Counted from the first letter of the stretch, positions 2,957 to 48,520 are shown. The stretch is DNA of 48,781 bases from Spirochaetota bacterium (GCA_003246895.1 QKCL01000016.1:1-48781); one strand, 5' to 3'. Program-made: numbers and translations. Notes: generated by a model not told the origin, from the sequence alone.

Positions 2957-2971
2957 AATGGAGGTTAAAAC

Positions 2972-3973: not shown

Positions 3974-3988
3974 TTCAGGAGGACAACT

Positions 3989-4369: not shown

Positions 4370-4371
4370 AA

Positions 4372-4402: not shown

Positions 4403-4431
4403 AATGATAAATATTTTGTTCAGAGGTTTTT

Positions 4432-5793: not shown

Positions 5794-5796
5794 TTT

Positions 5797-6735: not shown

Positions 6736-6832
6736 TTTGATACTCTCCAAAAATTAAAGAGTGATTTTCAAATTCACTTAGTATTATAATAATTAAAAAA
6801 ATAAAAATCATCAGTGATTTTTTTGTTAATTT

Positions 6833-7579: not shown

Positions 7580-7807
7580 GTTATCCTCGATTACTGGTAT
7601 ATAATACTGTTCGGTACCTAATGAACCATTATCAAGGTATTTATGTCAATAATATTCTTCCATGAAATTTCTGATGCTTACTCAACGAAAATACAGCTAT
7701 TAAAAAAACAGCATCCTAAATAATATCTAATTTTCTTTTCATATGAGCAGAAAAATAATTACACAAATTCAGAGAGGGAGTATATTTTAAATATAAGATT
7801 ATTATAT

Positions 7808-31356: not shown

Positions 31357-31430
31357 CGGGGCGTAGCGCAGCCAGGTAGCGCACATGACTGGGGGTCATG
31401 TGGTCGCAGGTTCAAATCCTGTCGCCCCGA
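31357..31430 (+). tRNA. tRNA-Pro (anticodon GGG)
   Basis: A 74-base cloverleaf: acceptor stem CGGGGCG / CGCCCCG, D stem GCGC / GCGC, anticodon stem CATGA / TCATG with loop CTGGGGG (anticodon GGG, reading CCC and CCU), a 5-base variable loop, T stem GCAGG / CCTGT with loop TTCAAAT, and discriminator A. The CCA end is not encoded. It is the left boundary of the downstream island, and its 3' half is repeated at 32481 and 48387. The two partial copies have TTCGAAT in the T loop while this intact gene has TTCAAAT. Confidence 0.95.
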
Positions 31431-31433
31431 ATA

Positions 31434-31461
31434 AAAGCCCTGATTTAATCAGGGCTTTTTC
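31434..31461 (+). terminator. Terminator of tRNA-Pro
   Basis: A 9-bp stem (AGCCCTGAT with a three-base loop and its complement) followed by TTTTT lies four bases after the tRNA. The same hairpin is copied almost unchanged at 32524-32551 and in degraded form near 48424-48450, as part of the repeated attachment unit. Confidence 0.88.
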
Positions 31462-31495
31462 ATGCCCTCATATATCTGCCATCGTTAAAATTACC

Positions 31496-32216: not shown

Positions 32217-32314
32217 TATAACTCCATACGACAAGAATTACTTAATATAATTGCTGTACAAATTTATCACAAGAATAGAGCTATTTTATTCATAAAGTCA
32301 AGAAGTCTTATTCC

Positions 32315-32480: not shown

Positions 32481-32630
32481 GGGGTCATGTGGTCGCAGGT
32501 TCGAATCCTGTCGCTCCGAATGAAAGCCCTGATTTAATCAGGGCTTTTTCATGCCCTCATATATCTGCCATCGCTGAAAAGACACTCCGCAGGACATATA
32601 TTGGACAAGAAAAACAAATCGAGTATAGTA
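32481..32630 (+). repeat. Attachment-site repeat B
   Basis: The first 93 bases match 31392-31484 without gaps and with only a few substitutions. They include the 3' part of tRNA-Pro with a canonical TTCGAAT T loop, the terminator and the conserved ATATCTGCC block. The 5' half of the tRNA is absent, so no functional tRNA is made. Further right, GGACATATATTGGACAAG is a diverged form of the TTGACC doublet. It marks the boundary between the small unit and the main operon. Confidence 0.85.
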
Positions 32631-32716: not shown

Positions 32717-33490
32717 TTACAGGCTGATTTTTATGGATATAATCGAAATATTGTCTGAGGAACCTTCTTCAAGGGCAAACTTCACAAGACTCCTGTTAAC
32801 CTCCTGAAGGTCTTCCGCATTATCTCTAATAATCTCTTTTATATCCTCGTAACATCTGTTCATGTCAATATCAGTAAGACCGTCACTGCACAGAACGAGT
32901 ATATCATTATCCATGATCTTGCCGGTGAGATCGAATGTATCTATGATAATGTTATCAATGCCACCTCCGACAGCACTAACAATAACGTTCTTCGGAACAT
33001 TCCCTCCATAGAGCTGTGCAGCCGAATGGTCTACAGTAATCTGTGAAAGATAAGTATCATGGAACCTGTACAGCCTTGAATCTCCAACATTAAAAACAAT
33101 ACACTTTTCACTATTAAAAAGTGTGCCCACCAGTGTTGTTCCCATACGTTTTTTGTTGCTTTCATTTCCGAAGGAGTTGACCTCCCTGTGTATCCTGAGT
33201 ATGGCTTCCTTTAAAACTTCCGTGTCTTCAATAAATTCCCTGCTCTGTCTGTCAAGAGCCTCTGAGAGTTTCTCAAGTGCCATGCGGCTTGCGACCTCGC
33301 CCGAAGCATGGCCTCCCATACCGTCAGCAACGGCAAAGCACACCGGATCTTCGCCTATCTCCTTTTCTTCAACTTCAGGTGTTTCATAACTGTCTTCCTG
33401 ATTCACGATGAGGCCGTCACAGAAGAGTGAATCTTCATTGGCCTGTCTCACAGAGCCCTTATCTGTCATAGAACTGTACTTAATTTTCAT
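32717..33490 (-). CDS. PP2C-family serine/threonine phosphatase
   Basis: A 257-residue soluble Mn/Mg-dependent phosphatase. All core motifs are present: RQANEDS near residue 15, ADGMGGHASGEVAS (about 53-66, with metal-binding Asp and Gly), GTTLVGTLF, VFNVGDSRLYRF, ITVDHS, ILVLCSDGLTD and the final SDNISIISI. It is of the PstP/PrpC type that pairs with Hanks-type kinases and FHA proteins. Its ATG overlaps the stop of the FHA gene by four bases, so it is translationally coupled. It is the last gene of the island operon. It should reverse phosphorylation by the kinase encoded at 38812-41220. Confidence 0.94.
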   Translation of the reverse strand: MKIKYSSMTDKGSVRQANEDSLFCDGLIVNQEDSYETPEVEEKEIGEDPVCFAVADGMGGHASGEVASRMALEKLSEALDRQSREFIEDTEVLKEAILRIHREVNSFGNESNKKRMGTTLVGTLFNSEKCIVFNVGDSRLYRFHDTYLSQITVDHSAAQLYGGNVPKNVIVSAVGGGIDNIIIDTFDLTGKIMDNDILVLCSDGLTDIDMNRCYEDIKEIIRDNAEDLQEVNRSLVKFALEEGSSDNISIISIKISL

Positions 33491-34104
33491 ATAACTTTAA
33501 ACTCCTGATCGGCAAAGTATATAACATCACCTTTATTTACAGGATAGACCATCTTCGCTTCAAGGAACTGTCCGTTTAACTTCGTCCTGTTTGTAGACTC
33601 GAGATCACTGAGACACCACTTCCCTGAATCAATAACAAAGACCGCATGTTCTCTCGAAATAAACCTGAACCCGTTGAGTCTTGAGCAATGCGGCCCCGTG
33701 GTTCTTCCGATTATATCGTTATGATTTATCTGTAGTTCAAAACCTGTTGAGTGCCTGATGACAAGTTCACCGGCCTGATGACTCCCGGGCGGATTAAACG
33801 CCATGGTAACATTGGGATTAGGTTCTGGAGCTGTATTAACATTAGTTCCGGCATGAACCTGTTCCGGAGCAGAAGTCTGACTCTGCGGAGCCTGTTCCAG
33901 AGACACCTGTTCCTCAGCAGGAAATTCATTTTCATGGTGAATACTTTTCTTCCGCGGTTCAAGCCTGATGCCGTCTTTTGGGCAGAATTTTCCTGTACCG
34001 AAGGTACCGCATTGGGGGCATTCAAGAATTTCCGCTCCGCACTGATCGCAGAATCTAGAATCATCATCTATTTCCATGTGACAGCTTTTTACTGGACAGA
34101 TCAT
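33487..34104 (-). CDS. Zinc-ribbon and FHA-domain protein
   Basis: A 205-residue adaptor. Two or three zinc-ribbon knuckles occupy residues 1-45 (CPVKSCHMEID, FCDQCGAEI, CPQCGTFGTGKFCPKDG). A low-complexity Glu/Gln/Pro/Ala linker (about 50-105) follows. The C-terminal FHA domain (about 115-205) has the conserved GR (DIIGRTTGP), ISREHAVF with the phosphothreonine-binding Ser-Arg-x-His, and the loop SDLESTNRTKLNG. FHA domains bind phosphothreonine peptides, so this is the expected reader of the island kinase. The start overlaps the AAA+ gene stop by ATGA and the stop overlaps the phosphatase start, so the three are translated as a unit. Confidence 0.92.
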   Translation of the reverse strand: MICPVKSCHMEIDDDSRFCDQCGAEILECPQCGTFGTGKFCPKDGIRLEPRKKSIHHENEFPAEEQVSLEQAPQSQTSAPEQVHAGTNVNTAPEPNPNVTMAFNPPGSHQAGELVIRHSTGFELQINHNDIIGRTTGPHCSRLNGFRFISREHAVFVIDSGKWCLSDLESTNRTKLNGQFLEAKMVYPVNKGDVIYFADQEFKVI

Positions 34105-37100
34105 TTGAGGTCCTCCTCTTCAAGTGTATACAGGGCAGGATCACCTGCCTCCAGTGACGGTATTGCTGCAATACGGCTCGCCTGGTTTTTACGGACTTTT
34201 TCAAACAGGTTACGAACTGTTCTTCCGTTTGCAAAGTTTTCGTCACGGTTTGAGTAAATAGCGGCAAGGTGAGAGTTCAGTTTCTCTTTGAACTTTTCAG
34301 TCATTATCATTTTATTAGACCGGGCCATGATGGCAAATATTGCGGAAAGTTCATCGGGCTTATAGTCCGGGAATTCGATGAAGTTCTGGAAACGTGATGG
34401 AAGCCCGGTGTTGCTGTTCAGGAACCGCTGCATCTCCTGTCTGTATCCGGCGGCTATGACAATAAATTTTCCTTTGGAATCCTCCATGCGTTTAAGTATG
34501 GTGTCTATTGCTTCCTTACCGAAGTCAGTCTCTCCTCCTCCGTCAGCCAGTGCATATGCCTCATCTATGAACAGGACTCCTCCCATGGCAGAGTCAATAA
34601 CAGCTGCAGTTTTGGTTGCAGTCTGTCCCACATAGCCTGCCACAAGTCCCTCACGGTCAACTTCCACGAGATGTCCCTTTGAAAGTATACCCATATGTTT
34701 GAAAATACCTGCAAGGATCCGTGCTACAGTTGTTTTCCCTGTTCCGGGGTTACCTGTAAAAATATAATGGGAACCGATCTTTGAAGCTTGATTGTCAGGA
34801 TTTCGCAGTTTCTCCACCCTGATTAAATCGATTAGTTCCCTGATCTCTTTTTTTATTTCACCAAGACCTATTAACCTGTCAAGACCTGCAAGTGCTTCGT
34901 CAAGGGAATACTCATCTTTCTTATCAACCGGGAAATCCTCTGCTTCGAGTATCCAGTAAAGGGAATCATCCATTTCCTGATTTTCAATTGAAAGATTTTT
35001 TTCAAGTTCAGTGAGCCTTACTGTCTGTTTTTGACGCACCTCATCGAAAAGATTACTTATATCCCTGCCGTTCCCGAACCGTTCACCTCTTTCCTGATAC
35101 ATTTTATTGCATACCTGTGAGAGAGACTGTTTTGCACTTTCAGAAAGAGAAAAACCCTCTCCCGAAGACATCATCTGAAATATACTGCTCAATTCCCTGG
35201 GCTCATAGTCTTCAAAATTAAAGGTCTTCTGAAACCTGCTGGCAAGTCCTGAATTTGATTTCAGGAACAGATCCATCTCCTTTCTGTAACCAGCGGCGAT
35301 CACAATGAACTTACCCTTATCATCACTCATACGCTTAACCAGAGTATCTATGGCATCTTGTTTGAAAGAATCACCATTGTCTGACGGAGTAAGCCCATAT
35401 GCTTCATCTATGAAAAGAACTCCGCCCATTGCACTGTCAACGGCTCTGTTAACTTTTTCGGAGGTCTGTCCAACATAGGATGCGATGAGGCCTGCCTTAT
35501 CAACTTCAACAAAACGGCTGGAGGGGAGAATCCCGATGGTATGAAAAATTTCACCGAGTTTACGGGCTACAGTTGTTTTTCCGGTACCGGGATTACCTGT
35601 AAGAATAATATGCGGGACTATACCGGACCCTTTTCCGGAAAGACTCTCCCGTTTCATCTGCATGTTGGTAAACTGTACAAGTTCCCATATTTCTTTTTTT
35701 ATATTATCCATGCCTACCATGGAATCAAGTTTTGAAAGTATATCTTCAACTGTAGGTTTCTTCTTTAATTTATAGTCGATGTCCTCGAGAGTGATGAGGC
35801 GCAGTTTTTCAGGAAGTCTCTCTTCAGGTTTCAGGGCGGAGAGTCTTGAAGCAAGCTTCTGTGCTGTTTTTTCGAATAAAGACCGCACATCTCTTCCATT
35901 ACCGAAATTTTGATCTCTGCCATCATACATCTCCTTCAAAACATCCTCAGACATCCTTGCTGCTTCTTCAGAGAGGGTGTATCCCGCGTTTTTAACCATG
36001 ATTTTGAAAATTTCATGGAGTTCATGGGGCTTGTAATCGGGAAGATTAAAAAAATCTGTAAATCTTCCCTTCAGTCCGGGGTTGGATTTTATAAACCTGT
36101 CCATTTCATTTTTGTAACCCGCTGCAATAACGACAAATTTCCCTCTTGAATCCTCCATACGCTTTAGGATGGTGTCCACTGCTTCCTGACCGTAATCCTT
36201 ACCTGCATCTTTTGGGATCAATGAATATGCTTCATCTATGAAGAGTATCCCTCCCATGGCAGAGTCTATCAGAGCAGATGTTTTCGGAGCGGTTCCGCCA
36301 ATGAACTCGCTAACAAGACCGTTTCTGTCTGTTTCAACGATATGCCCCGAAGGAAGATACCCGATTGCCTTGAGAAGCTTTCCAAGAATTCGTGCAATTG
36401 TAGTTTTCCCTGTGCCCGGGTTTCCTGTAAAAACAATATGTATTCCGAAGTCAACTCCCTTGATCCCGAGTGTTCTTTGTTCTTCCCTGATATTTATTGC
36501 ATGAGCATAGCCTTTAAGTTTTTCTTTGACATCCTCCATGCCAACAAGGTCATCCATTGATGCAATGACCTCCTCGGGAGTCATCTTTTTCACACCTTCA
36601 TCGGGGATATCCTGATCTGTAATCAGAATCAGGCTTTCTTCATCGAAGGTACCGGACTCTGCAAGCCTCTTGCTCTGGAGGTTCAGGACTTTTGGAATAA
36701 CCTCCCTTACCACAAGCCAGCCGTTTTTATATTCACAGCTCTTCGAATACATTACCGACTCAATGTAATCACCAAGCCGTTCAACAGCCACCTCTGTAAC
36801 ATGGAAGCTGCTCTTGCTGAGTTTAATAAGTGTCATTTTAAGAAGCTCATCGGCAGAATAGTCTTCCAGATCAAATAGAAGTATTCTCTGTTTCTCTTCC
36901 CGGTTTTCCTCAAAGTATTTGTTAAGAGGGTCCTTCATACCGGCTATTATGATGATGATATCTTCACCGGTCGTTTCCAGGGAATTGATTATAGTGGTGA
37001 TTGCCTCTGTATTCCTGTGCATCTCATCAAAGAAGAGAATTCCGCCTCTGGCCTTATCAATCCATTTGTTTATTGAGGAGGAGATGTTCTGCCCCTCTCT

Positions 37101-37517
37101 TTTTATTATTTCATTGTCTATTTCAAGGAATGTCCCCTTTGAAAGAACACCGATCCTGTGAAATTCCTCTGCGAAATACCGGCCCATCATGGTTTTTCCG
37201 GTACCTGTATCTCCCATAAATACTGAGTGGAGGTATAGAGGAGTTGAGGGTAGTCCCCTCTTCTTCCTTTCGTTATCAGCAATAACCCTGTTCCTTTTAT
37301 TGCTTATCTGTTCCTTTACTTTTTCGTGGCCCACGATACTGTCCCAGTCTATTGTATGTTCCTCTGAAGTCTGATGGCCGGTTTGATTATTATTTATAAT
37401 TTCACCGCATTCCTTGCAGAATTTGGCAATGGGACGGTTCCTTGTTCTGCATGCAGGGCATACAAGAAACTGTTTATTTTCTTTTTCTCTTTCCTGAGAC
37501 TGTGACTGAACCTGCAT
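34101..37517 (-). CDS. Protein with four tandem CbbX/SpoVK-type AAA+ modules and a zinc ribbon
   Basis: A 1138-residue ATPase. A zinc ribbon lies near residues 18-40 (CPACRTRNRPIAKFCKECG). Four AAA+ modules follow. Module 1 is divergent, with P-loop GDTGTGKT and Walker B GGILFFDEMH. Modules 2-4 have P-loop GNPGTGKTT, Walker B GGILFIDEAY or GGVLFIDEAY, and the sensor strand KFIVIAAGY. Modules 2-4 are CbbX/SpoVK/EccA-like, each with a downstream helical lid ending NFGNGRDV or similar. All Walker residues are kept, so all four may hydrolyse ATP. Single or double modules are usual for this family; four is exceptional. CbbX-type proteins remodel protein complexes by pulling on tails. ATG at 37517 has a GGAG site. 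It overlaps the FHA gene at its 3' end. Confidence 0.93.
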   Translation of the reverse strand: MQVQSQSQEREKENKQFLVCPACRTRNRPIAKFCKECGEIINNNQTGHQTSEEHTIDWDSIVGHEKVKEQISNKRNRVIADNERKKRGLPSTPLYLHSVFMGDTGTGKTMMGRYFAEEFHRIGVLSKGTFLEIDNEIIKREGQNISSSINKWIDKARGGILFFDEMHRNTEAITTIINSLETTGEDIIIIIAGMKDPLNKYFEENREEKQRILLFDLEDYSADELLKMTLIKLSKSSFHVTEVAVERLGDYIESVMYSKSCEYKNGWLVVREVIPKVLNLQSKRLAESGTFDEESLILITDQDIPDEGVKKMTPEEVIASMDDLVGMEDVKEKLKGYAHAINIREEQRTLGIKGVDFGIHIVFTGNPGTGKTTIARILGKLLKAIGYLPSGHIVETDRNGLVSEFIGGTAPKTSALIDSAMGGILFIDEAYSLIPKDAGKDYGQEAVDTILKRMEDSRGKFVVIAAGYKNEMDRFIKSNPGLKGRFTDFFNLPDYKPHELHEIFKIMVKNAGYTLSEEAARMSEDVLKEMYDGRDQNFGNGRDVRSLFEKTAQKLASRLSALKPEERLPEKLRLITLEDIDYKLKKKPTVEDILSKLDSMVGMDNIKKEIWELVQFTNMQMKRESLSGKGSGIVPHIILTGNPGTGKTTVARKLGEIFHTIGILPSSRFVEVDKAGLIASYVGQTSEKVNRAVDSAMGGVLFIDEAYGLTPSDNGDSFKQDAIDTLVKRMSDDKGKFIVIAAGYRKEMDLFLKSNSGLASRFQKTFNFEDYEPRELSSIFQMMSSGEGFSLSESAKQSLSQVCNKMYQERGERFGNGRDISNLFDEVRQKQTVRLTELEKNLSIENQEMDDSLYWILEAEDFPVDKKDEYSLDEALAGLDRLIGLGEIKKEIRELIDLIRVEKLRNPDNQASKIGSHYIFTGNPGTGKTTVARILAGIFKHMGILSKGHLVEVDREGLVAGYVGQTATKTAAVIDSAMGGVLFIDEAYALADGGGETDFGKEAIDTILKRMEDSKGKFIVIAAGYRQEMQRFLNSNTGLPSRFQNFIEFPDYKPDELSAIFAIMARSNKMIMTEKFKEKLNSHLAAIYSNRDENFANGRTVRNLFEKVRKNQASRIAAIPSLEAGDPALYTLEEEDLK

Positions 37518-37648
37518 ATAGATTACTCCATCATTTAAAATATCACCGAATCTGGTTATCCGGTTTGCCTTATCCTTTTATGCTGAAATGTTCTTTAAGT
37601 ATACCTGTTTTCGCTGGAATAGTTGTGTCATTAAAAGAATTAAAACCT

Positions 37649-38722
37649 TCACTGTTTTACAAAAAGCTGCCCTATTTTTTCATTACGGTAATCGATAAAG
37701 TATCCCTTTAAGACCGATCCCGAATCATTTACTCCTCCGCAGTAGCTGAAATGACCTGACCTGCCTTTCATATTTCTCAGCTTTGTACTGTGAAAGCTGA
37801 AGTTGTTCCCATCCCAGGTTCCTTCAAGAGTATATACACACTCCCGTCTTCCGCCACTGTCCAGTGCTATCCAGTGGCTGCTTCCGGTAAGGGTGTTCCC
37901 TGAAAGATTCAGGTTCATGGTTTCAACCCAGGTATCAGAGATGGAAACCCATGTTCCCTCGACCCTTTGCTCATATCGTTCCCGTTCTTTACGGTCCTTT
38001 TCAAGGCGGAGACGTTCGAGTTCCTGCTGACGCTCTCTCTCCTTTCTCTCTTCCCTTTCTTCGATTAACTCATCGACACGGTTTTTTTCCCTTGCAACAA
38101 GCCCCTGCAGTCTTGCCACAATACCTCTCATTTTATCCTGCTCTTCAGGAGTCATTGTTCTTGTACATTTAAACTGGGAAGCGTTATATTCTCTGACCCT
38201 TTCTTCAAGTTTTCTGTAGTTTTCCATTGATTCAAGAACCATCATTTTATCTTTTGCATTTTCAAGTTCCTTGATCACGGCGGTTGACAACAGGTTTTGG
38301 TGATGAGCAATAATGGCCGCAGCATCCTGTTCAGACATTATCTCAACCTCACGGGTTTGTTTCATTTCCATTTCAGCTTCCTGAAGAAATTCCACGAGTG
38401 CTTTGCCGCAGTCAGTGCAGAAATCACCATACTTCATTTCGCTGCAGTTGCTGCAGAAATGCTCCTCAAGAGATGAACCGCACAAAGTACAATACAGGCC
38501 TGTATTCATCTTACCGCAGAGGGGACATTTCCTTTCAGCAGTATCAAATCCTGAACCGCACTCAACACAGAACGCAGCATCGGGTTCATTGATATACGAA
38601 CAGGAAGGGCATCGTTTACCTCCTGTCTCTTTCTTCTCTACCTGTTCCTGGACATCTTCCTGATGCCTCTCCTGATATTGTTCCTGCTTTTCAGGAAGTT
38701 CACTATAATCAAACTTTGACAT
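37649..38722 (-). CDS. Multi-zinc-ribbon, coiled-coil protein
   Basis: A 357-residue protein with no recognised family. Residues about 37-110 hold a run of zinc-ribbon knuckles: CPSCSYINEPDAAFCVECG, CPLCGKMNTGLYCTLCG, and CSNCSEMKYGDFCTDCG. A long charged helical region (about 110-255) rich in Glu and Arg (EEREERKERERQQELER) is a likely coiled coil. The C-terminal domain (about 256-357) is beta-rich, beginning EGTWVSISDTW and with a lipocalin-like repeated GTW pattern (LEGTWDGNNFSF), possibly a small-molecule-binding barrel. It lies between the kinase (89 bases upstream) and the AAA+ gene (131 bases downstream). It shares zinc-ribbon type with the AAA+ and FHA proteins, suggesting they assemble. 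Confidence 0.75.
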   Translation of the reverse strand: MSKFDYSELPEKQEQYQERHQEDVQEQVEKKETGGKRCPSCSYINEPDAAFCVECGSGFDTAERKCPLCGKMNTGLYCTLCGSSLEEHFCSNCSEMKYGDFCTDCGKALVEFLQEAEMEMKQTREVEIMSEQDAAAIIAHHQNLLSTAVIKELENAKDKMMVLESMENYRKLEERVREYNASQFKCTRTMTPEEQDKMRGIVARLQGLVAREKNRVDELIEEREERKERERQQELERLRLEKDRKERERYEQRVEGTWVSISDTWVETMNLNLSGNTLTGSSHWIALDSGGRRECVYTLEGTWDGNNFSFHSTKLRNMKGRSGHFSYCGGVNDSGSVLKGYFIDYRNEKIGQLFVKQ

Positions 38723-38811
38723 TTTTCCCTCTGAATATTCCCATGGCTTCTTTTTTTAAGGAGTTCTTCTGTTATTTTCAAATATATTAAACAGGTTCTT
38801 AATAATATTGG

Positions 38812-41220
38812 TTATCGTGGAGATCCGTGCGGAGATGGATCATATATCCTTTTACTATTGCCGGTTATTACATCGATTTCTTCATCGCATCTGGTTCTTA
38901 ACACTTTCCATCTGTTGAACAGGTGATAAAGCGGAAATGCGAGCAATGAAACTAAACCGACAGTACCTACGATACCGCAGAATACGATATGAAACTGATT
39001 CCTGCCGTAAAAACTGTCTTTTTCTCTGCTTAAAAGCAGGCCGGAAAGAGCTCCAAGAGAAATTACACAGAATATTATCATGGGTATAAAGAAGAAGAGT
39101 ATAATCCTGTCTGCATAGAGCACCTTCAGGTTACCCGCCATCATGAATCCTGTTTTCTCCAAACCTTCTGCATAATATTTTACCGGCACCATCTCGGATG
39201 AACTGAATTTTCTAAACCGGGACTGTGAAATTTTTTCACCGAGAACGATGAACTTGTTGTTTGCCGTTACACTGGCCCCTCTTCTGTTCTCACTGCTGTA
39301 TATTACTGAATTTATTCTGGCTTTTGGCGAAAATGCGTATGGAGAAAATTCTGTAATTTTATAAAAATCACTCATCAGACTTCCCCAGCTGAACAGACAG
39401 AACGCAATCATAACAATGGACAGGGCAGATACAATATTTACCCAGAGCCTTATTCTGTCCGGAATTTTTTCCGCTTCCGCAATCTTCTGTTTTCTTATAA
39501 ACTCTACATTCCCGGAAAGAATCTCTGTAAGGTTCTTCCATGTCTTGCTCATAATACTCCAGTCTTTTTCAAAACTTTCAGGTATATCCTGCCTTATGAG
39601 CCAGAGATAAAGGATTGAATTTCTGTTGGTCAGTTCGTTTATAATATTTGTTCTGTTATTCCAGGGCAGGTTCAGCAGCTCATTGACGCTCGACACCTCA
39701 TATTCATTATTCCTGAATGGTCTTATTTTATTTCCGGCAAAGGAGAGGTAGATTTTGCTTACAACTGAAAGCCTCTTTGAAGAGTCGCCTTCCATCCTGT
39801 AAAACTCAACCTCATTCTCTATGAGCTTGACAATTTGCTCTCCCTCATTACCGAAAGTATTGAGCCATGCAAAGATGTCCGACCTCTTTTCCTGAAGAAT
39901 GAGCTGGGTCATGAGTTCAGGCCTTTTTCTGAGAATGTCTTTAAATTCTTCAATGGTATTAAGATAAATATTTTCATCTATGCGGCACGGCCTTTCCGGA
40001 TTTAGGAGATATATGGCCCTGCTGACTTTTTCATCATCATTCAGGGAGGAGACTGCTATGTCTGATACTTTATCACTCAACTCATCGTTGAATCTCCTGA
40101 GCCACTGTTCTATTTTTGAATCCATGAGCTCAGCTTTGGCAGCCTCTCTGTGCTGATCGAGAAAATCGGAAAGATCCTTAACACCATAGAATTTTATTTC
40201 TTTTTTATTTTCCCTGTCATAGAAGAGATATGGTATATCGTCTATAATTTTAAGAGTGCTGAACTCTTCTATTTCATCTCCTTTGAGCCACCCATCAACC
40301 TGTTCGGCCCCCCATCTCTGTTCGGGCGGAGGAGTAAGCAGACCTTTCAAAAGCTGTTTCATTCTTCGTGAAAGTTTTTTTGCAGCCGGGTCTGTAATCA
40401 TTTTTTTTATGATCGTTCCGTTTGAAGCATATGCCTTAATATCATAATTACTTAAGCCTGTATTCGGATTTTTTCCTGTTAGCAGTTCAAATACTGTAAT
40501 TCCAAGAGAATAATAATCGATTTTGTATCCAATTTTATACTTAAAATCATCTGTATGAAGATGGATTTCCGGCGCAGAATATGCCAGGGTTCTAAATCCT
40601 GTACCAGTCATTTTCTCATCGATGTCATCGTACATTTCCGAAGATATGCCAAAATCTCCCAGAACGATATCCAGACTTTCCGTATCTCTTAAAAAAAGGT
40701 TCGCAGGCTTGATATCACGGTGAGTGACTTTTTTTTCTTTTATATATTTTAATGCATTATTTACCTGTGCTATAATATCTGTCACCTGTTCCTCTGAAAG
40801 CGGCAGGTGTTTATATGTTCCATCGGGATTTCTGTCAGCAAGGGTACCGCCTTCGGCATACTCCATTATTTCATAGAATCTGCCGTTATATCCCTTTTCA
40901 TTAAAACAGATAAGCTTGATGACATCGTCATGATCAAGAGCTTTAATTTTATTCAGAATATTTACTTTAGGCTTATGATTGGAGTGATAATATTTTATTA
41001 CAACCGTTTCATTATCTTTCCGGGCTTTATATATTTCTGCCTCTCCGGAATCACTTGATATTATATCGTCTATGATATAGCCATCAAGATTTGCACCATA
41101 CATGCTTTTGAGAAGATCCCTGTTTACATTATCTGCTGTACTTTCAGGAGCTGAATATTCAAGAGTATCTGTTTTTAAAGGGTCCTGTTCAAATTTCTCA
41201 GTTTCATTATTTTGGTTCAT
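38812..41220 (-). CDS. Membrane-anchored Hanks-type Ser/Thr protein kinase
   Basis: An 802-residue kinase. The kinase domain spans about residues 48-320: catalytic Lys76 in VVIKYY, HRDIKPAN at 167-174 with Asp169, and the DFG at 189-191. The activation loop has several Thr residues before YSAPEIH. The glycine-rich loop is atypical (ISSDSGEAEIY, one Gly). A long region of unknown function follows (about 320-600). Three hydrophobic segments lie near the C-terminus (NIVSALSIVMIAFCLF, LFFFIPMIIFCVISLGAL, IVFCGIVGTVGLVSLLAF). The kinase domain is therefore cytoplasmic, with a short region between helices possibly outside. No PASTA repeats are present. Its substrates may be the FHA, AAA+ or VirD4-like partners; this is inference from operon context. 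Confidence 0.9.
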   Translation of the reverse strand: MNQNNETEKFEQDPLKTDTLEYSAPESTADNVNRDLLKSMYGANLDGYIIDDIISSDSGEAEIYKARKDNETVVIKYYHSNHKPKVNILNKIKALDHDDVIKLICFNEKGYNGRFYEIMEYAEGGTLADRNPDGTYKHLPLSEEQVTDIIAQVNNALKYIKEKKVTHRDIKPANLFLRDTESLDIVLGDFGISSEMYDDIDEKMTGTGFRTLAYSAPEIHLHTDDFKYKIGYKIDYYSLGITVFELLTGKNPNTGLSNYDIKAYASNGTIIKKMITDPAAKKLSRRMKQLLKGLLTPPPEQRWGAEQVDGWLKGDEIEEFSTLKIIDDIPYLFYDRENKKEIKFYGVKDLSDFLDQHREAAKAELMDSKIEQWLRRFNDELSDKVSDIAVSSLNDDEKVSRAIYLLNPERPCRIDENIYLNTIEEFKDILRKRPELMTQLILQEKRSDIFAWLNTFGNEGEQIVKLIENEVEFYRMEGDSSKRLSVVSKIYLSFAGNKIRPFRNNEYEVSSVNELLNLPWNNRTNIINELTNRNSILYLWLIRQDIPESFEKDWSIMSKTWKNLTEILSGNVEFIRKQKIAEAEKIPDRIRLWVNIVSALSIVMIAFCLFSWGSLMSDFYKITEFSPYAFSPKARINSVIYSSENRRGASVTANNKFIVLGEKISQSRFRKFSSSEMVPVKYYAEGLEKTGFMMAGNLKVLYADRIILFFFIPMIIFCVISLGALSGLLLSREKDSFYGRNQFHIVFCGIVGTVGLVSLLAFPLYHLFNRWKVLRTRCDEEIDVITGNSKRIYDPSPHGSPR

Positions 41221-41293
41221 TGCATTTCTGCTCCAGAGTTAGTATTTAAGAATAAATTCCGGCAAAAGAATGCCGGTAAAAAAACTGCAGAAA

Positions 41294-42322
41294 CTAATAG
41301 TAACGGGTTTTTCTTCTTATATACAATAATATTAAAATTACAACTATTGCCCCGCCGAAAAAATCGCTCCAGAATTCTTTCCGTGCTCTGCTTCGTTTTA
41401 CGGTTGCTTTCTTTAACAGCCACTTTGCGGACCTGTGATCCTTATTCTTTTCAAGAATATTTTCGAGTAAATCGATTGAGTCTGAATACTTTTTCTTTTT
41501 GTACAGGTAATATGCCTTTCCATACATACGCCTGGTTTCAATAACCTGTCTTGCGGTGCTAAGTTTCTGTTCGCTTGTCTCAATGGATTTAAAAAGCTGT
41601 ACAATTACCGGATTGTCCTTTTTCAGTTCTTTGTTCTCTGACAGAAACATTTTAATCTGATTCCCGGCTTCGGTAAAATTCTTTCTATTCAGATAATAGG
41701 ATATTTTTGTTCTCAGTTTACTTAATGAAATTTTCATTGCAGGGGTAAGTTTTTTCAGGCTTTCAGCATACTCCAGTTTTTCAATTCTTTTCATAAGCTC
41801 CAGGGCAGTATTATTGTCTGTGTCATATTCCAGTATTTTGCTGACATTTTCTCTGGCAGTTACTGTATCATTTTTCTGCAAACTTACTCCTGCGTTCCTG
41901 ATCAGGGTTCTTATCTCCTCCTTTACCCGGTTACCGATATACTTTTTAGTATTACTGTACTGTTCACTTCCAATTATCACGTCGGAGTCAATGGAGTCAA
42001 GAATAGCGTATGCCCCGTGTGTATCATTTTCAGCTATGGCATCAGGAATAAGTGTATGAAGCTTACGGAACTCATATACAGTAAAGCCGGAGTTTACCAC
42101 AATCATGGTCAGGGCAAAGTACAGCACAGGGGAAACAACAAATCTCTTGTTAAAGGCAACTATTGATACCCAGACTGCAAATACAGCCTGTGTAATGACG
42201 AGTGCATAAAAAGTATTGGTCCTGAGAAAGAAGTGCAGCAGTGAAGTAAGGATCAGGAGAGCTACCGGTATGAGATAGTAGATATGACCTCTGGTATCTT
42301 CAAAAAATTTCTCTAACTTCAT
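41294..42322 (-). CDS. Membrane protein with helical repeats (TPR-like)
   Basis: A 342-residue protein. The N-terminus has three closely packed hydrophobic helices (IPVALLILTSLLHFFL, FYALVITQAVFAVWVSIV, SPVLYFALTMIVV; about residues 16-85). A helical domain of about 210 residues follows, with TPR-like units (AGVSLQKNDTVTARENVSKI, AYYLYKKKKYSDSIDLLENI). One final helix (FFGGAIVVILILLYI) and a basic tail RRKTRYY end the protein. I do not recognise a named family. ATG at 42322 has a CGGAG site. The position next to the membrane kinase, in the same operon, suggests a scaffold at the membrane. Confidence 0.75.
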   Translation of the reverse strand: MKLEKFFEDTRGHIYYLIPVALLILTSLLHFFLRTNTFYALVITQAVFAVWVSIVAFNKRFVVSPVLYFALTMIVVNSGFTVYEFRKLHTLIPDAIAENDTHGAYAILDSIDSDVIIGSEQYSNTKKYIGNRVKEEIRTLIRNAGVSLQKNDTVTARENVSKILEYDTDNNTALELMKRIEKLEYAESLKKLTPAMKISLSKLRTKISYYLNRKNFTEAGNQIKMFLSENKELKKDNPVIVQLFKSIETSEQKLSTARQVIETRRMYGKAYYLYKKKKYSDSIDLLENILEKNKDHRSAKWLLKKATVKRSRARKEFWSDFFGGAIVVILILLYIRRKTRYY

Positions 42323-42392
42323 CTAAACACTCCGTAATTTTTTTAAAATATATTTCAAAGGGAAATCAATTAAATTCTCAATCCCTGCATAT

Positions 42393-44858
42393 TCATTTAT
42401 CAGCCCATTTAAATTTTTTAAAGAGCTTGCTGTTCTTACTTCGATATACTGTTTTTGCAGCAGTTATTCTATTTTTGAAGTCACGGCTGTCTCTGCTTAT
42501 GCCCACTCCCGGTTTCAGGTACATGCCGTTATATTTGTAACACAGAGTAATTTCTTTCTTCTCATCTGCCATGGAATCAATGTTGACCGTGGTATCCGAA
42601 TCCATAATTTTTCCGGCATTATCATAATCTTCCAGATCTTTTTTATAGAAATACAGTTTTTCAGCATTTATTTCCGCCAGCCCTACTGGTACATCTGCAG
42701 CATCTTCCCTTTCTCCTTTTTTTGAAACCAGTTTCACGGAAACGACAAGCCTGTCATCATTCTGAAATCTGTGGAACTGCGGCTGAAATTCACGTGAATT
42801 TTCAAGATCAACTGAAGAGTACAGACGCACTTTCATTGGAACTATGAGTTTAACATTTTCATGATGAATCTCTATGGTACTGGCGATTGGTTTTTTCTGC
42901 ATCCATTCCGAAAAGTATGCCATGTTCCGTGTGATAAACCCGTTCAGGACATTACCTTCAATTTCTTTATAATTATCAGAACCCGGAACGACAACATCCT
43001 TCTGTGAAATAAAATCATATCCGGGATCTCCTTCAGATAAAATATGTCCATGCCATACAGAATGTTCATAATAATCATTTACAGGTCTCAGGCGTACTTT
43101 GTAGAGTTTTAAAGGTATTTCAAAACTACGTTCCATATTAAATTTTTTATGGTACAGTTTCTTTTCCAGAAAAACCTGATCAAAATATTTTGAACTATTT
43201 ATCTTTCTGATTTTATTTCCAAAAGCGGAACTATCGGGTTTTGAAAAAGTCATTACCTCCGATTTGATATAGTAATCCCCGAATGCAAATCTGTTATAAA
43301 TCGAAACTGTTGGGTACAGAGCCAGAATTCCTGATATAACATAGGTAACAAGGGAGATCTTTATTATCCCGTGCCTGAAAGACCGGGATTTATTAATGCT
43401 ATTCCATGTAACTTTGTCGAATTGTTTGGAAATGAAACTTACAGACAGGGTGATCATCAGCCCCATGCCGATGCAGCTTGCAAGGAGTCCGAATGCTATC
43501 AGTTCCCATAAATCCGGACTGGAGTTTGAACTTATTATAACAAGCCAGGCCAGTATAGGTAAAATTGAAGCGGGAAGAATGCCTGCGATAACCCCCGGCA
43601 TGACAGATCTCTTTATGGAGTCACCCATTGTATTGACAACATCACTGAAAAAAGAATCACTCATCGTGTTGGCGCGGCAGGGATTTGATTTGCATCGGTT
43701 TTCAATTATTTCAGCAATTACAGGAGATTTTAAAAAAACCGCAAGACTTCCGGTGAGCGACTTGTCAGGGAGAAGAGAGAAACGCTTCTGGCCGGAACGG
43801 GACTTTTTTATATTATTAAGGTCTCTGTTAAGGAGAGTATCCAGTATATGCCTGAAACTGAATATTTTCTGCCGGGGCCCTATGCCGTAAATACTGAACC
43901 GGACACCGTCTATTTCCAGCTTCAACTCCGTAACAAGTGCCCTGTACTCATAATATCTTTTAAAGGACATGCCCTCAACCCCGCAACTTACCTGATTGAT
44001 CTCTGTAAGAGATTTAAGGAGGCTGAAGTCAAGGCGATTCAGTTCAGATTTATGTTCAGCATTCTGTGTGAGCGGAGAATTAATCCTGATACTGCGGATA
44101 TCACATTCCACACTTTTATACATATGGAGAATACCGGTTCCATTACATGTGGAGCATGTGACATATCCTGACCCTCCGCATCTGCTGCAGACTACCACTC
44201 CACGGCCTGAACAGGTATTACATCTTTGTTTCCCGCCGCCCCCGCAGCTGTAACATGTTTTTTTTCCGGAGCCGCCGCATGATGAACAGTTTGCCGCCTT
44301 CTGAACAGTCATGCCGTTGAAATCGGTTGTATTATACTTTATTGTGCCGCTGCCCCAGCATGAGGAGCAGGTATCGTATCCACGGCCGCCGCAATGGTAA
44401 CAGTTTACTTCCCCCCGGCCGCCGCAGTTATGACAGGTAACCTCTCCATGGCCCCCGCATGTGGAACATGTAACTTTCCCTGAACCTCCACAGGTTCCGC
44501 ATGTCCAGGAGGTCCCGAAATAATATGGCCCCTGAAAGAACAGTTCTTTTCCGGGAGAATCATCACTATGTATGCTGTTACCTTTCCACCTGTCCAGCTT
44601 TGATTTAAAACTGCTTTTTTCCCCATTTATCGAACTGTTTACATCACTGTCAATGTCTGAACTTTTTGCAACATAACCCGGCAGGGAACCTGTACCGTTT
44701 ATTTTTCTTATATTGAATGATACATCATAGGTAACATCATACCGCCCATCTACTACAGAGGTTATACAATCAAGAACCTTAACAGAAGACATGGTGAACC
44801 GTGTTCTTGCGGTTACAACATCCGAAATCTGGCTGTACATATATTCATGATTGTTCAT
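42393..44858 (-). CDS. Membrane protein with ten DnaJ-like CxxCxGxG motifs
   Basis: An 821-residue protein. Residues about 120-250 contain ten CxxCxGxG-type motifs (CGTCGGSG, CSTCGGHG, CHNCGGRG, CYHCGGRG, CSSCWGSG, CSSCGGSG, CYSCGGGG, CNTCSGRG, CSRCGGSG, CSTCNGTG). DnaJ normally has four. No J domain is present. An N-terminal beta-like domain (1-115) precedes the array, and two or three membrane helices lie near residues 420-520 (AGILPASILPILAWLVIISS, LIAFGLLASCIGMGLMITL, ISLVTYVISGILALYPTVS). A C-terminal domain of about 300 residues is unrecognised. It ends ahead of the next gene by 70 bases and begins nine bases after the lipoprotein stop. The Cys array probably binds zinc and polypeptides; a chaperone-like role is inference. 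Confidence 0.82.
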   Translation of the reverse strand: MNNHEYMYSQISDVVTARTRFTMSSVKVLDCITSVVDGRYDVTYDVSFNIRKINGTGSLPGYVAKSSDIDSDVNSSINGEKSSFKSKLDRWKGNSIHSDDSPGKELFFQGPYYFGTSWTCGTCGGSGKVTCSTCGGHGEVTCHNCGGRGEVNCYHCGGRGYDTCSSCWGSGTIKYNTTDFNGMTVQKAANCSSCGGSGKKTCYSCGGGGKQRCNTCSGRGVVVCSRCGGSGYVTCSTCNGTGILHMYKSVECDIRSIRINSPLTQNAEHKSELNRLDFSLLKSLTEINQVSCGVEGMSFKRYYEYRALVTELKLEIDGVRFSIYGIGPRQKIFSFRHILDTLLNRDLNNIKKSRSGQKRFSLLPDKSLTGSLAVFLKSPVIAEIIENRCKSNPCRANTMSDSFFSDVVNTMGDSIKRSVMPGVIAGILPASILPILAWLVIISSNSSPDLWELIAFGLLASCIGMGLMITLSVSFISKQFDKVTWNSINKSRSFRHGIIKISLVTYVISGILALYPTVSIYNRFAFGDYYIKSEVMTFSKPDSSAFGNKIRKINSSKYFDQVFLEKKLYHKKFNMERSFEIPLKLYKVRLRPVNDYYEHSVWHGHILSEGDPGYDFISQKDVVVPGSDNYKEIEGNVLNGFITRNMAYFSEWMQKKPIASTIEIHHENVKLIVPMKVRLYSSVDLENSREFQPQFHRFQNDDRLVVSVKLVSKKGEREDAADVPVGLAEINAEKLYFYKKDLEDYDNAGKIMDSDTTVNIDSMADEKKEITLCYKYNGMYLKPGVGISRDSRDFKNRITAAKTVYRSKNSKLFKKFKWADK

Positions 44859-44867
44859 AGCAGTACC

Positions 44868-45779
44868 TTAATTCAGTTTTTCAATTTCACCATCAGGTTT
44901 TTCACCAGGCAGATATCTCCTGATTATATATTCCCTGACCGGTTTACCCTCATTGTTATAATGTGTTTCCCTTTCCGGAAGCCCGTTCCCGCCGTACATA
45001 TATTCAACAGCTTCTCTCTTTCCCCTTTTTCCCCGTTCCATGTATGCCGCAGTGTAGTAATTTGACTCTCTGGTTATCTTCCGTTTATCATTGAAAACAA
45101 TGACCGACCTCCGTACGATGAGATTCTTTCCATTATAGAACAGTTCTTCAATACTATGAGGATCTATGAGACACGATTTCGAATAACTTACGAGTTTTCC
45201 GGATTTATTATAGATCTCACTTGATTCTCTGCTTACAAGACCGTGTTCAGGGGAAAGGCGTGCAAAATCCGGATTACCGAGAATAAAGCTGAATCCCGTA
45301 GGTTTCCCTGCTTTATTAAAGTGATATTCTTTCAGCAGATTTTTTGAATCTTCATTTTTATAGACTGTGCTGGTGATTTTTTTCCCATGGCTGGAGAGTA
45401 TATTTTTTTCACGTAAAAATTTCCCTGAGTATATGAACTCAGATCTTTTCAGGATTTTGCCCCTTCCATTTTTATGAATAATGGACGAAAGCCTGCCCTC
45501 TGAGTCATATTCGTATTCATCAATGGAGCCGAGTTTTATTCCTGCATTGGAATAACTCTTTTCTGTCCCGGGAGTGCCGTTCTCTGTATAGTCCCTTTCA
45601 AGCCAAAGAACACCTTTCGACTTCACTCCTGTTTTAGCGTTATATGAATATTCATAAACCCTTTCGTATCTGAAACCGTTTTTTTTAATATTCTCCGCAA
45701 AATCTGTATCAGGTAAACCGGGAGTTTCAGAACATGCAGAGACAACAAGAATCAGGAACATAAATATTCTTATGTACAT
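44868..45779 (-). CDS. Putative lipoprotein with YD/RHS-like repeats
   Basis: A 303-residue protein starting MYIRIFMFLILVVSACSE. The lipobox VVSAC places the modified cysteine at residue 16, so it should be anchored to a membrane outside the cytoplasm. The mature part has repeated short strands of the YD/RHS kind (YEYSYNAKTGVKSKGVLWL, YEYDSEGRLSSIIHKNGRGK, YNKSGKLVSYSK, YNNEGKPVREY), similar to lipoprotein beta-strand ladders. ATG at 45779 has a GGAG site; a longer in-frame reading from 45836 would bury the signal and is not supported. This is the only clearly exported protein of the operon and implies an envelope role. The function is not recognised. Confidence 0.78.
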   Translation of the reverse strand: MYIRIFMFLILVVSACSETPGLPDTDFAENIKKNGFRYERVYEYSYNAKTGVKSKGVLWLERDYTENGTPGTEKSYSNAGIKLGSIDEYEYDSEGRLSSIIHKNGRGKILKRSEFIYSGKFLREKNILSSHGKKITSTVYKNEDSKNLLKEYHFNKAGKPTGFSFILGNPDFARLSPEHGLVSRESSEIYNKSGKLVSYSKSCLIDPHSIEELFYNGKNLIVRRSVIVFNDKRKITRESNYYTAAYMERGKRGKREAVEYMYGGNGLPERETHYNNEGKPVREYIIRRYLPGEKPDGEIEKLN

Positions 45780-45878
45780 AAAAACTCCATCAGTTCTGGA
45801 TTTTTTCAAAGCAATTCTTATGGGTTTTAACCGCAAAATCTCAAATCACAGTTATTTACATAAAAAACACTGCTATTT

Positions 45879-45905
45879 GCTATACTAATCACAGACTTAT
45901 GTCAA
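45879..45905 (-). promoter_or_regulatory. Possible internal promoter before the lipoprotein gene
   Basis: On the minus strand, TTGACA at 45905-45900 is followed 15 bases later by TATAGC at 45884-45879, about 100 bases upstream of ATG 45779. The spacing is slightly short. The 177-base gap between the VirD4-like gene and the lipoprotein is the largest in the operon and would suit a second start site. Confidence 0.4.
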
Positions 45906-45956
45906 TTTTTTTTGATTATAAATATTTAGAACCTGTAAAATCATGACATTACTATA

Positions 45957-48065
45957 TTAAGAACCGAAGAAAGGAACAAACCCACCGTTCTCATTAAACC
46001 TGCCGGTATACCTCAACTGGGTCTGATCCGTAATTATGGGTAACGGACCTTCAATGGGCTCATCATCTGCCATTTCTACCATACCATCTCTGGTTATTTC
46101 AAATTTTGTATTGAAGAGACTGTCTCCATATATCACTACAGCTTCCATTAACCACTTCTCCCCGGTCTTGTCATAGGAGACAACCCTTGGTGGAAAGATC
46201 TGATTCTGTAAATGCTCAATATAGGTTTTTTCCGGGTTCTCCAGCCATCTGATTTCGTAGGCATTATCAACAATAAGAAACCTTCCCTCATCGCCGTAAA
46301 CACTGGTGCAGAAGAACTCAAGGTATAATCTTAAATTTTTCCAGTTTAGATTGATTCTGTTTTCATTAATCTCATGTATATGTGAAGACCTGCCGTCCAG
46401 GAGACTTGAATTATTGCTGTTCATGGCATAATAGCTGTGGTAGCCTATGTTTGTTCTGGCATCTTCAATATGGTACCAGTCAACATCATCATAGAATGGA
46501 AGTCTGCACCGCCGTACCTCTACATTTGGATTATCCCTGAAACTCCTGTTGGTTATACCAGCAAGGTCAAAACAGTTGTTTCTCTCTTCTTCCTCCAGGC
46601 TCTCCCATTCACTTTGCGGGATCGGATGGAAAATTCTGTTAATCTGAACAAGTCCGTTTTTTATACCATTATCATTTTTTTTCGGCGCAGGTGCTTTGGA
46701 CTTTCTGAAAACAGGCCTTGCCCTGAGTACCCTTTCTTCGGCTTCATCCAGTTCTTTATAAAAGGGGTTATTATCAAAAAGTCCCTTAAAAACTGTGTCA
46801 TACATATAATTCGGTTTCGCTGCAACAACCGCCTCATCCCCCTGTATATTCAGAATCAGTTCATCATCTTCCAGATCCATGACAAGTTCCGGTGTACCGA
46901 AACCGGAAACGTTGCATACAGCATTTGCAGACATGCACGTTGTTGAACCGAAATACTGCTGAATACGGCTGTTGTTCAGTATTGTTTCCCAGTCATTTGG
47001 GTAAAGGTTAATAAGCTGACTTAAATCCTGCCAGAAACTCCAGACACGTACTCCGTAACCCCTGAGAAGAGTAATAGCCTGTCTCAGCTGGGGGAGTGTT
47101 CCCAGTTGCGCTGCTTCATCCAGAAGCATGAGAGTGGAATTCTCCGGCTGAACCCGCCGCCTTGTAATTACTGTTATTATCGTTCCTATCCATAATCTCA
47201 GTAGAGATGAATGACTCTCGAGTTTGGAAGGAGGGATGACCAGATATATGGAAAGAGGAGATCCATCATAGATCTTGTTGAGGTCAAGATCAGAACTGGA
47301 AAGATGTTCTTTCATCTGCTTACCCTTAAGGAAATCGAGCTGGTTTACGGCAAATGCGAGGTAGCCTCCAACAGTTGAGTCTGCAGGATTCTGAAGGAGA
47401 CTTGCCAGTTTCTGCAGTTCTTCATTACCCGAGGACATCCACTGCTCTGACCGGGCAACGAGAGATTCATATGTGCCGTTAAGAAGATCCCGCACAGCAG
47501 GAAGAGTAGCAGTGTCTGAATCGGACATTGTAAGAACATCAATTATTGCCGCAGTAACAAGAGATCTGCCCATTTCAGACCAGAAAAGGTTGTCTGAATT
47601 GGTCTTTTTCTGGTCTGACGCTATAAGTGTAGCAATGGTTGATACATCTTCAATGAACTGTTCAGATAGAGGGTCAGCCAGATCAAGGGGGTTGAACCTG
47701 TGTTTTTCAGTCTCTCCTGTTATATTAAATGGATCGAGCAGTATTACCTCCTGCCCCATCTCTCTCCTCCGGCGCGCAGTAACTGAATAATTTTCACCTT
47801 TGGGATCGACAACCACAACCGGACCCGGATAGCGCAGCAGTGCAGGGATTATGCATCCGGTTCCTTTCCCTGCACCTGTAGGCGCGACTGTTATCAGATG
47901 GCCCTCGCCTGTATCGAGTATGGGTTCAAGAAAGAATGCCGTGGACCTGGACTTATCCTTCGTTTCCGATTCCTTAAAGCCCACAATGGATTTTCTGCAT
48001 CCCGATTCAAGTGACCATCCAACAAGAAGTCCCTCATGGGATATGGTTTCAGGTAGTTTTCGCAT
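45957..48065 (-). CDS. VirD4/TraG-like coupling ATPase, soluble, with new C-terminal domain
   Basis: A 702-residue P-loop ATPase of the VirD4/TraG/TraD (FtsK-HerA) superfamily. The Walker A is VAPTGAGKGTGCIIPALL near residues 59-76, then VVVVDPKGENYSVTARRRRE, Walker B LMLLDEAAQLGTLPQLR near residue 315 and GVRVWSFWQDLSQL, all typical of T4 coupling proteins. The usual N-terminal membrane helices are absent. After about residue 470 comes a domain of more than 200 residues without recognised family. No relaxase, mating-pair genes or oriT are visible. It is the first gene of the island operon, with ATG at 48065 and a GAGGAG site. Hexameric pumping of DNA or protein is likely from the family; the substrate here is unknown. 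Confidence 0.88.
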   Translation of the reverse strand: MRKLPETISHEGLLVGWSLESGCRKSIVGFKESETKDKSRSTAFFLEPILDTGEGHLITVAPTGAGKGTGCIIPALLRYPGPVVVVDPKGENYSVTARRRREMGQEVILLDPFNITGETEKHRFNPLDLADPLSEQFIEDVSTIATLIASDQKKTNSDNLFWSEMGRSLVTAAIIDVLTMSDSDTATLPAVRDLLNGTYESLVARSEQWMSSGNEELQKLASLLQNPADSTVGGYLAFAVNQLDFLKGKQMKEHLSSSDLDLNKIYDGSPLSIYLVIPPSKLESHSSLLRLWIGTIITVITRRRVQPENSTLMLLDEAAQLGTLPQLRQAITLLRGYGVRVWSFWQDLSQLINLYPNDWETILNNSRIQQYFGSTTCMSANAVCNVSGFGTPELVMDLEDDELILNIQGDEAVVAAKPNYMYDTVFKGLFDNNPFYKELDEAEERVLRARPVFRKSKAPAPKKNDNGIKNGLVQINRIFHPIPQSEWESLEEEERNNCFDLAGITNRSFRDNPNVEVRRCRLPFYDDVDWYHIEDARTNIGYHSYYAMNSNNSSLLDGRSSHIHEINENRINLNWKNLRLYLEFFCTSVYGDEGRFLIVDNAYEIRWLENPEKTYIEHLQNQIFPPRVVSYDKTGEKWLMEAVVIYGDSLFNTKFEITRDGMVEMADDEPIEGPLPIITDQTQLRYTGRFNENGGFVPFFGS

Positions 48066-48386: not shown

Positions 48387-48520
48387 TCATGTGGTCGCAG
48401 GTTCGAATCCTGTCGCCCTAATAAAATCAAAATTTGATCAGAGCTTTTTTATGGCCTCATATATCTGCCATCTTTAAAATACTGCGTTGCACAAATATTA
48501 CACAGTCTAAATCACTTTTA
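48387..48520 (+). repeat. Attachment-site repeat C (attR-like, diverged)
   Basis: TCATGTGGTCGCAGGTTCGA and following bases repeat the tRNA-Pro 3' half with the canonical T loop, then a degraded terminator stem and the conserved block CCTCATATATCTGCCAT, with a two-base deletion relative to repeat A. Beyond it, GCACAAATATTACACAG is a diverged TTGACC doublet. The acceptor end is mutated (GTCGCCCTAA), so it is a relic. It marks the right end of the island. Confidence 0.82.

What the first reader, a model, noticed from the sequence alone, without database searches (positions are those of the whole stretch)
32717..48065. Nine-gene island operon joining a phospho-threonine circuit to AAA+ and VirD4-like ATPases
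On one strand, in one operon, the sequence shows a membrane Ser/Thr kinase (38812-41220), a zinc-ribbon-FHA reader (33487-34104), a PP2C eraser (32717-33490), a four-module AAA+ protein (34101-37517), a zinc-ribbon coiled-coil protein, two membrane proteins, a lipoprotein and a VirD4/TraG-like ATPase (45957-48065). Kinase, FHA and PP2C regulate T6SS in known systems, and CbbX-like AAA+ with FtsK-like ATPases occur in T7SS, but no sheath, tube, WXG100 or channel genes accompany these. The set does not match a system I know. A phospho-switched translocation or defence machine is my inference. The location on a tRNA-integrated island fits defence or secretion cargo.
Basis: partly seen in the sequence, partly recalled or inferred. 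Interest (0 to 1): 0.92.

Follow-up and report, generated by a model that had tools for sequence, protein, structure and literature searches.

The report
Phosphothreonine-switched quadruple AAA+ module
A five-gene set (kinase, phosphothreonine reader, phosphatase, zinc-ribbon protein and a four-motor ATPase) is kept together in dozens of Bacteroidota and Spirochaetota genomes and looks like an undescribed switch for a protein-remodelling motor; the VirD4-like gene beside it here is a local addition, and nothing shows that the set is a secretion or anti-phage machine.

Summary
The nine ORFs exist at the stated coordinates, with intact kinase, PP2C and ATPase motifs. The operon fills a 15.9-kb segment bounded by direct repeats of a tRNA-Pro 3' half, with no integrase inside. 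Comparison splits it in two. (1) A five-gene core (ZnCC, STK, AAA4, FHA, PP2C) is a real conserved module: all five genes lie together in 26 examined loci of Spirochaetota and Bacteroidota, AAA4-FHA-PP2C in that order in 33. Distances co-vary, and the module's AAA4s form their own clade. The kinase has a private middle domain and an N-terminal tail of repeated Thr motifs (held-out test: T-x-R 36 observed, 8.5 expected; S-x-R 0), which I predict are docking sites for the FHA protein. (2) VirD4 accompanies the core only in the window's own family (3 of 3 genomes, other orientation in two); CXXC and lipoprotein genes were seen only in the window. VirD4 has no predicted membrane segment, and the genomes lack VirB4, TssC and WXG100, so a known secretion channel is not supported. 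In Prevotella the core sits mostly at one chromosomal site, not a defence island. Best reading: a phosphothreonine switch on a CbbX/SpoVK-type remodelling ATPase, target unknown. I found no description of it in the papers and libraries held.

The parts
32717..33490 (-). PP2C-type Ser/Thr phosphatase (core)
   Evidence: Pfam PP2C_2 2.7e-14; motifs intact; ortholog downstream of FHA in 33 loci
33487..34104 (-). Zinc-ribbon + FHA phosphothreonine reader (core)
   Evidence: Pfam FHA 9.4e-13; invariant zinc-ribbon cysteines and FHA G-R, S, H, N across 11 orthologs
34101..37517 (-). AAA4: zinc ribbon + four CbbX/SpoVK/EccA-type AAA+ modules (core)
   Evidence: Pfam AAA x4, AAA_lid_6 x3; four Walker A/B sets; PDB matches CbbX 3syk/3zuh and EccA1 9lur
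37649..38722 (-). ZnCC: double zinc ribbon, charged coiled-coil-like stretch, conserved C-terminal domain (core)
   Evidence: Pfam DZR 1.8e-8; conserved C-terminal domain; orthologs in Spirochaetota and Bacteroidota
38812..41220 (-). STK: Thr-rich tail, Hanks-type kinase, private helical middle domain (about aa 312-590), three predicted TM segments (core)
   Evidence: Pfam Pkinase 3.1e-38; middle domain only in kinases of this module, no PDB fold match; tail motifs
41294..42322 (-). TPRmem: membrane protein with four predicted TM segments and a repeat-like region (family-level accessory)
   Evidence: 32% identical orthologs at the same position in G014 and G016; TM prediction
42393..44858 (-). 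CXXC: several CxxCxGxG DnaJ-type zinc-finger repeats + three TM segments (accessory seen only in the window)
   Evidence: Weak Pfam DnaJ_CXXCXGXG 5.6e-6; only zinc-finger-level matches in 148 relatives
44868..45836 (-). Predicted lipoprotein with YD/RHS-like repeats (accessory seen only in the window)
   Evidence: Pfam RHS_repeat 0.024, weak; lipobox-like LVVSAC in the translation; not found in G014 and G016 loci
45957..48065 (-). VirD4-like ATPase without predicted membrane anchor, with an extra C-terminal domain of about 240 aa (family-level accessory)
   Evidence: Pfam T4SS-DNA_transf 7.3e-59; 60-61% orthologs in G014 and G016; no TM; soluble relatives on Sinorhizobium and Runella plasmids
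31357..31430 (+). Intact tRNA-Pro (GGG), the likely attachment gene
   Evidence: ARAGORN
31392..31490 (+). att-like repeat copy 1 (tRNA 3' half + terminator)
32481..32579 (+). att-like repeat copy 2, left end of the operon island (95% to copy 1)
48387..48480 (+). att-like repeat copy 3, right end of the operon island (86% to copy 1)

Best explanation
A conserved five-gene phosphothreonine switch that controls a CbbX/SpoVK-type AAA+ remodelling motor. Proposed order of events: the sensor kinase receives a cue through its variable C-terminal region and phosphorylates threonines in its own repeated N-terminal tail; the zinc-ribbon FHA protein binds these phosphothreonines; through zinc ribbons present in the FHA protein, ZnCC and AAA4 it gathers the motor and its client at the kinase; AAA4 remodels or extracts that client; PP2C removes the phosphates and resets the switch. 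In the window's family the module has gained TPRmem and a soluble VirD4-like ATPase, probably as further clients or outputs. Shown: the genes, intact motifs, conserved linkage and order, co-variation, Thr-motif tails, swapped kinase C-termini. Inferred: tail phosphorylation, FHA docking, zinc-ribbon assembly, client remodelling. Unknown: cue and client.
For: Linkage: 26 loci hold all five genes, 33 hold AAA4-FHA-PP2C in order. The other 69 tandem-AAA loci, some on short contigs, show none of these partners. Pairwise distances co-vary, r = 0.91-0.99. Module AAA4s form one group apart from other tandem CbbX-type proteins, support 94/96. Kinase tails are Thr-rich (12.6% against 4.5%) with repeated Thr motifs; in 19 held-out tails T-x-R 36 observed against 8.5 shuffled, S-x-R 0 against 5.3. 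The middle-domain profile finds module kinases not used to build it (1.6e-21, 1e-10, 2e-6) and no others searched. Kinase C-termini vary: 3 TM, MORN, WG + TPR, ankyrin + TM, 4-5 TM. Intact catalytic motifs. AAA modules match CbbX and EccA1.
Against: No experiment exists. The T-x-R motif was chosen after looking at the first set and tested on related Bacteroidota tails, which are not independent of each other; the spirochaete motif (T[EQ]x[ILVF]) has no held-out test. Tail phosphorylation and FHA binding are inferred. AAA4 could act on nucleic acid instead of protein. Correlated distances partly reflect shared species history.
Confidence: 0.55

Rival explanations
1. Anti-phage or other conflict system: the kinase senses infection and, through FHA, switches AAA4 (with VirD4 here) into an abortive or blocking response, as kinase-phosphatase modules such as KKP do.
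For: Patchy distribution: 25 of 301 sampled genomes of the Prevotella family and few spirochaetes. tRNA-bounded island in the window. KKP pairs kinases, an FHA domain and a PP2C in defence (PMC11341870). Soluble VirD4 relatives lie near caspase, patatin and STAND-TPR genes on Sinorhizobium and Runella plasmids. A DUF4062 protein sits next to one Bacteroidales clade of the module.
Against: No system-specific PADLOC match. Fixed chromosomal site between M13 peptidase and MetA/U32 genes in most Prevotella loci. No nuclease or recognised toxin in the core. No copy found in viral contigs.
Confidence: 0.17
2. Two cassettes side by side: the core switch and an unrelated soluble VirD4 gene share an island or locus without working together. 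(This concerns VirD4 only and is compatible with the best explanation of the core.)
For: VirD4 was not found in Bacteroidota and other spirochaete loci with the core; its orientation differs between the window and G014/G016; its relatives elsewhere live without the core.
Against: Adjacent to the core in 3 of 3 family genomes across two genera and two unrelated chromosomal sites, with orientation changed but neighbourhood kept.
Confidence: 0.3
3. A phospho-switched translocation machine in which VirD4 passes substrates to an unknown channel formed by the membrane proteins.
For: VirD4-type ATPase beside CXXC and TPRmem membrane proteins and a lipoprotein; EccA-like AAA modules.
Against: No VirB4, TssC or WXG100 in five genomes. 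VirD4 without TM segments. CXXC and lipoprotein genes missing from the closest related loci.
Confidence: 0.07

Closest known systems
T6SS threonine-phosphorylation pathway (PpkA-PppA-Fha; PMC3953482)
   Same: Ser/Thr kinase, FHA reader and PP2C eraser controlling an ATPase-bearing machine
   Different: No T6SS sheath (TssC absent); the machine here is a four-module CbbX-type AAA+ protein; zinc ribbons in three components
KKP kinase-kinase-phosphatase defence module (PMC11341870)
   Same: PP2C and Ser/Thr kinases with an FHA domain in one cluster
   Different: KKP has an FHA fused to one kinase and a cold-shock domain on the other, and is defined as a three-gene cluster without an AAA+ gene; here FHA is a separate zinc-ribbon protein
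CbbX / SpoVK / EccA AAA+ family
   Same: AAA4 modules match this family best
   Different: Four modules in one chain with an N-terminal zinc ribbon, linked to a kinase circuit; no WXG100 in the genomes tested
VirD4/TraG type IV coupling proteins
   Same: Walker A/B and TraG-D_C core
   Different: No N-terminal membrane segments, an extra C-terminal domain, no VirB4 found in the genome
Kinase-PP2C-vWA and GTPase-centric systems (PMC7159879; TerY-P from memory)
   Same: Kinase-PP2C pairing with zinc ribbons
   Different: No vWA or GTPase component recognised in the window operon

Membership tests
T6SS with threonine-phosphorylation pathway | Sheath protein TssC/VipB in the genome | tested here: not met
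   PF05943 absent from G000, G014, G016, G162, G192; control genome rings
T4SS / conjugation | VirB4-type ATPase in the genome | tested here: not met
   PF03135 absent from the five genomes; control rings. Window genome is 95.7% complete
T4SS / conjugation | Coupling protein with N-terminal TM segments | tested here: not met
   No TM in the window VirD4 or its ortholog; a Sphingobium conjugative VirD4 in the same alignment has them
T4SS / conjugation | VirD4-type nucleotide-binding motor domain | tested here: met
   PF02534 7.3e-59; motifs
T4SS / conjugation | Relaxase in the genome | not tested
   Not searched
T7SS/ESX | WXG100 substrates | tested here: not met
   PF06013 absent from the five genomes; control rings
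CbbX/SpoVK/EccA-type AAA+ family | AAA core with AAA_lid_6 and intact Walker motifs | tested here: met
   (three of four modules have the Pfam lid)
KKP defence module | PP2C followed by two kinases, one with a cold-shock and one with an FHA domain | tested here: not met
   One kinase in the window, FHA on a separate protein, no cold-shock domain match; definition from PMC11341870
Known defence systems in PADLOC 2.0 | System-specific profile matches | tested here: not met
   Only generic kinase and AAA matches
Integrative element at tRNA-Pro | Direct repeats of the tRNA 3' end at both ends | tested here: met
Integrative element at tRNA-Pro | Integrase within the element | tested here: not met
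   No integrase among the ORFs between the repeats; contig ends 301 bp after copy 3

The most novel reading that the evidence does not exclude
A separate class of bacterial signalling machine: a kinase with a multivalent phosphothreonine tail assembles, through a zinc-ribbon FHA adaptor, a single-chain four-module AAA+ remodeller on demand, with exchangeable sensors and lineage-specific outputs (a soluble VirD4-like motor in one family).
Probability: 0.35. Interest if true: 0.8.

Novelty: new variant of a known kind. Interest (0 to 1): 0.63.

Why it matters
It would add a phosphothreonine-gated AAA+ machine to the few known kinase-FHA-phosphatase switches. It occurs in Prevotella and relatives, several from rumen or gut samples, where I found no function assigned to it. 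The tail repeats, the private kinase domain and the fixed gene order make the circuit directly testable.

Tried and rejected
First genome-contig scan with the VirD4 protein found nothing. The VirD4 C-terminal domain model was poor (pLDDT 41.5, two sequences) and was not searched. The kinase middle-domain model (pLDDT 78.8) has no PDB match better than E 1.8. Patterns T-x-[VIL], T-x-[VILF]-[DENQ] and T-x-x-[DE] were not enriched in kinase tails. The strict AAA4 search in the Prevotella family undercounts, since the source genome of L061 itself was missed, so prevalence is taken from the FHA profile. Rejected: nine genes as one conserved unit; a T4SS, T6SS or T7SS variant with channel genes elsewhere, within the markers tested. 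A plasmid search found no place covering 80% of AAA4. Literature searches found no description of the set (open-licence papers only).

Full report
Observation. The window is a whole contig (G000:C11, 48,781 bp) of a 3.57-Mb assembly, 95.7% complete. All nine ORFs are present as described, with the expected Pfam domains and intact catalytic motifs. Gaps are -4 to +131 bp on one strand.

Island. The intact tRNA-Pro at 31357-31430 overlaps the first of three copies of its 3' half and terminator: 31392-31490, 32481-32579 and 48387-48480. The operon occupies the 15.9 kb between copies 2 and 3. No ORF there is an integrase; the contig ends 301 bp after copy 3, so an integrase beyond it cannot be excluded. 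A 1.1-kb segment with one unrelated ORF lies between copies 1 and 2.

What is conserved. In G014 and G016 (same family, another genus) PP2C, FHA, AAA4, ZnCC, STK and TPRmem occur in the same order at 32-63% identity, with VirD4 next to them but divergently transcribed; CXXC and the lipoprotein were not found there, and no tRNA was found in the stretches read. Three other spirochaetes, G162, G192 and G238, have all five core genes without VirD4; G285 has AAA4-FHA-PP2C and G356 STK-AAA4.

Beyond the phylum. A scan of GTDB genomes with the AAA4 alignment brought Prevotella, Prevotellaceae and Bacteroidales loci that carry ZnCC-STK-AAA4-FHA-PP2C or most of it. An FHA profile matched 25 of 301 genomes of that family, and 20 of these regions, some truncated, show the same order. 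In total 26 examined loci hold all five genes and 33 hold AAA4-FHA-PP2C in order. The remaining 69 loci, with other tandem CbbX-type proteins, show no such partners, although several are short contigs. VirD4 was not found in four Bacteroidota genomes with the core. The module's AAA4s group apart from other tandem CbbX-type proteins (94/96) and the spirochaete ones lie on one side. Distances among AAA4, FHA, PP2C and STK correlate at 0.91-0.99, part of which is shared species history.

Where it sits. In most Prevotella loci the core lies between an M13 peptidase and MetA/U32 peptidase genes (these names are by my recognition of the sequences). Other clades have other neighbours. This fits mostly vertical inheritance with occasional relocation and loss, rather than defence-island traffic.

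The kinase. Its tail is Thr-rich (12.6% against 4.5% in the rest) and carries repeated motifs that differ by lineage: T[EQ]x[ILVF] in spirochaetes, T-x-R in Prevotella. T-x-R, chosen on the first set, was then tested on 19 further tails: 36 observed against 8.5 shuffled, with S-x-R 0 against 5.3. Examples are DDKTMVY-like repeats in L195, LDGTVRAPG repeats in L196 and AT[IL]RP repeats in L211. The middle domain is found only in module kinases, including three not used to build the profile, and its predicted structure has no PDB match. C-termini differ: three TM segments in the window, MORN repeats in its relatives, WG and TPR in G162, ankyrin plus TM in G192, 4-5 TM in Prevotella. This fits a fixed kinase core with exchangeable sensors (inference).

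VirD4. It has the VirD4/TraG motor but no predicted TM segment, unlike a conjugative Sphingobium protein in the same alignment. Soluble relatives (43.6% identical over aa 2-461 in Sinorhizobium) occur on Sinorhizobium and Runella plasmids near caspase-family, patatin, ankyrin and STAND-TPR genes. Part of its extra C-terminal domain recurs in a 1275-aa protein elsewhere in the same genome. VirB4, TssC and WXG100 are absent from five core-bearing genomes, with controls ringing.

Mechanism. The evidence fits a reversible phosphothreonine switch on a CbbX/SpoVK-type remodeller (CbbX and EccA1 are the nearest solved structures): kinase tail phosphorylation, FHA docking, recruitment of AAA4, reset by PP2C. 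Docking, recruitment and client remodelling are inferred. The T6SS pathway (PMC3953482) and KKP (PMC11341870) work on the same principle, but this set fails membership in both on defining features.

Limits. Annotation rests on ORF calling and profile searches. Transmembrane calls are hydropathy only. Many loci are metagenome assemblies. The literature held is open-licence PubMed Central only, so 'undescribed' means not found there, in Pfam, NCBIfam or PADLOC.

Noticed in passing
L042 (G209) 944-8802 and L043 (G064) 3025-10618: A different cluster joining a related STK with a ClpA/B-like AAA+ protein, a radical-SAM-like protein and, in L042, a zinc-ribbon FHA protein; its kinases did not match the middle-domain profile described here.
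   Followed up: partly
L140 6089-12853 and L141 9198-15162: A shorter (about 860 aa) relative of AAA4 next to a ZnCC-like protein and a large unknown protein (YYRGSxSYE... start), without kinase, FHA or PP2C nearby.
   Followed up: partly
L012 9585-13412 (G000:C57): A 1275-aa protein with repeat-like sequence and no Pfam match that contains part of the VirD4 C-terminal domain.
   Followed up: partly
L147 15185-17500 and L149 6667-8469: Soluble VirD4-like ATPases on Sinorhizobium and Runella plasmids beside a small unknown gene, with caspase-family, patatin and STAND-TPR genes near: possibly a conflict system of their own.
   Followed up: partly
window 31611-32234: A 207-aa membrane-protein-like ORF without Pfam match alone between att-like repeat copies 1 and 2.
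   Followed up: no
L206 12018-15131, L070 14595-17657, L069 10302-13364: A DUF4062 protein of about 1020-1037 aa downstream of the module in one Bacteroidales clade.
   Followed up: no
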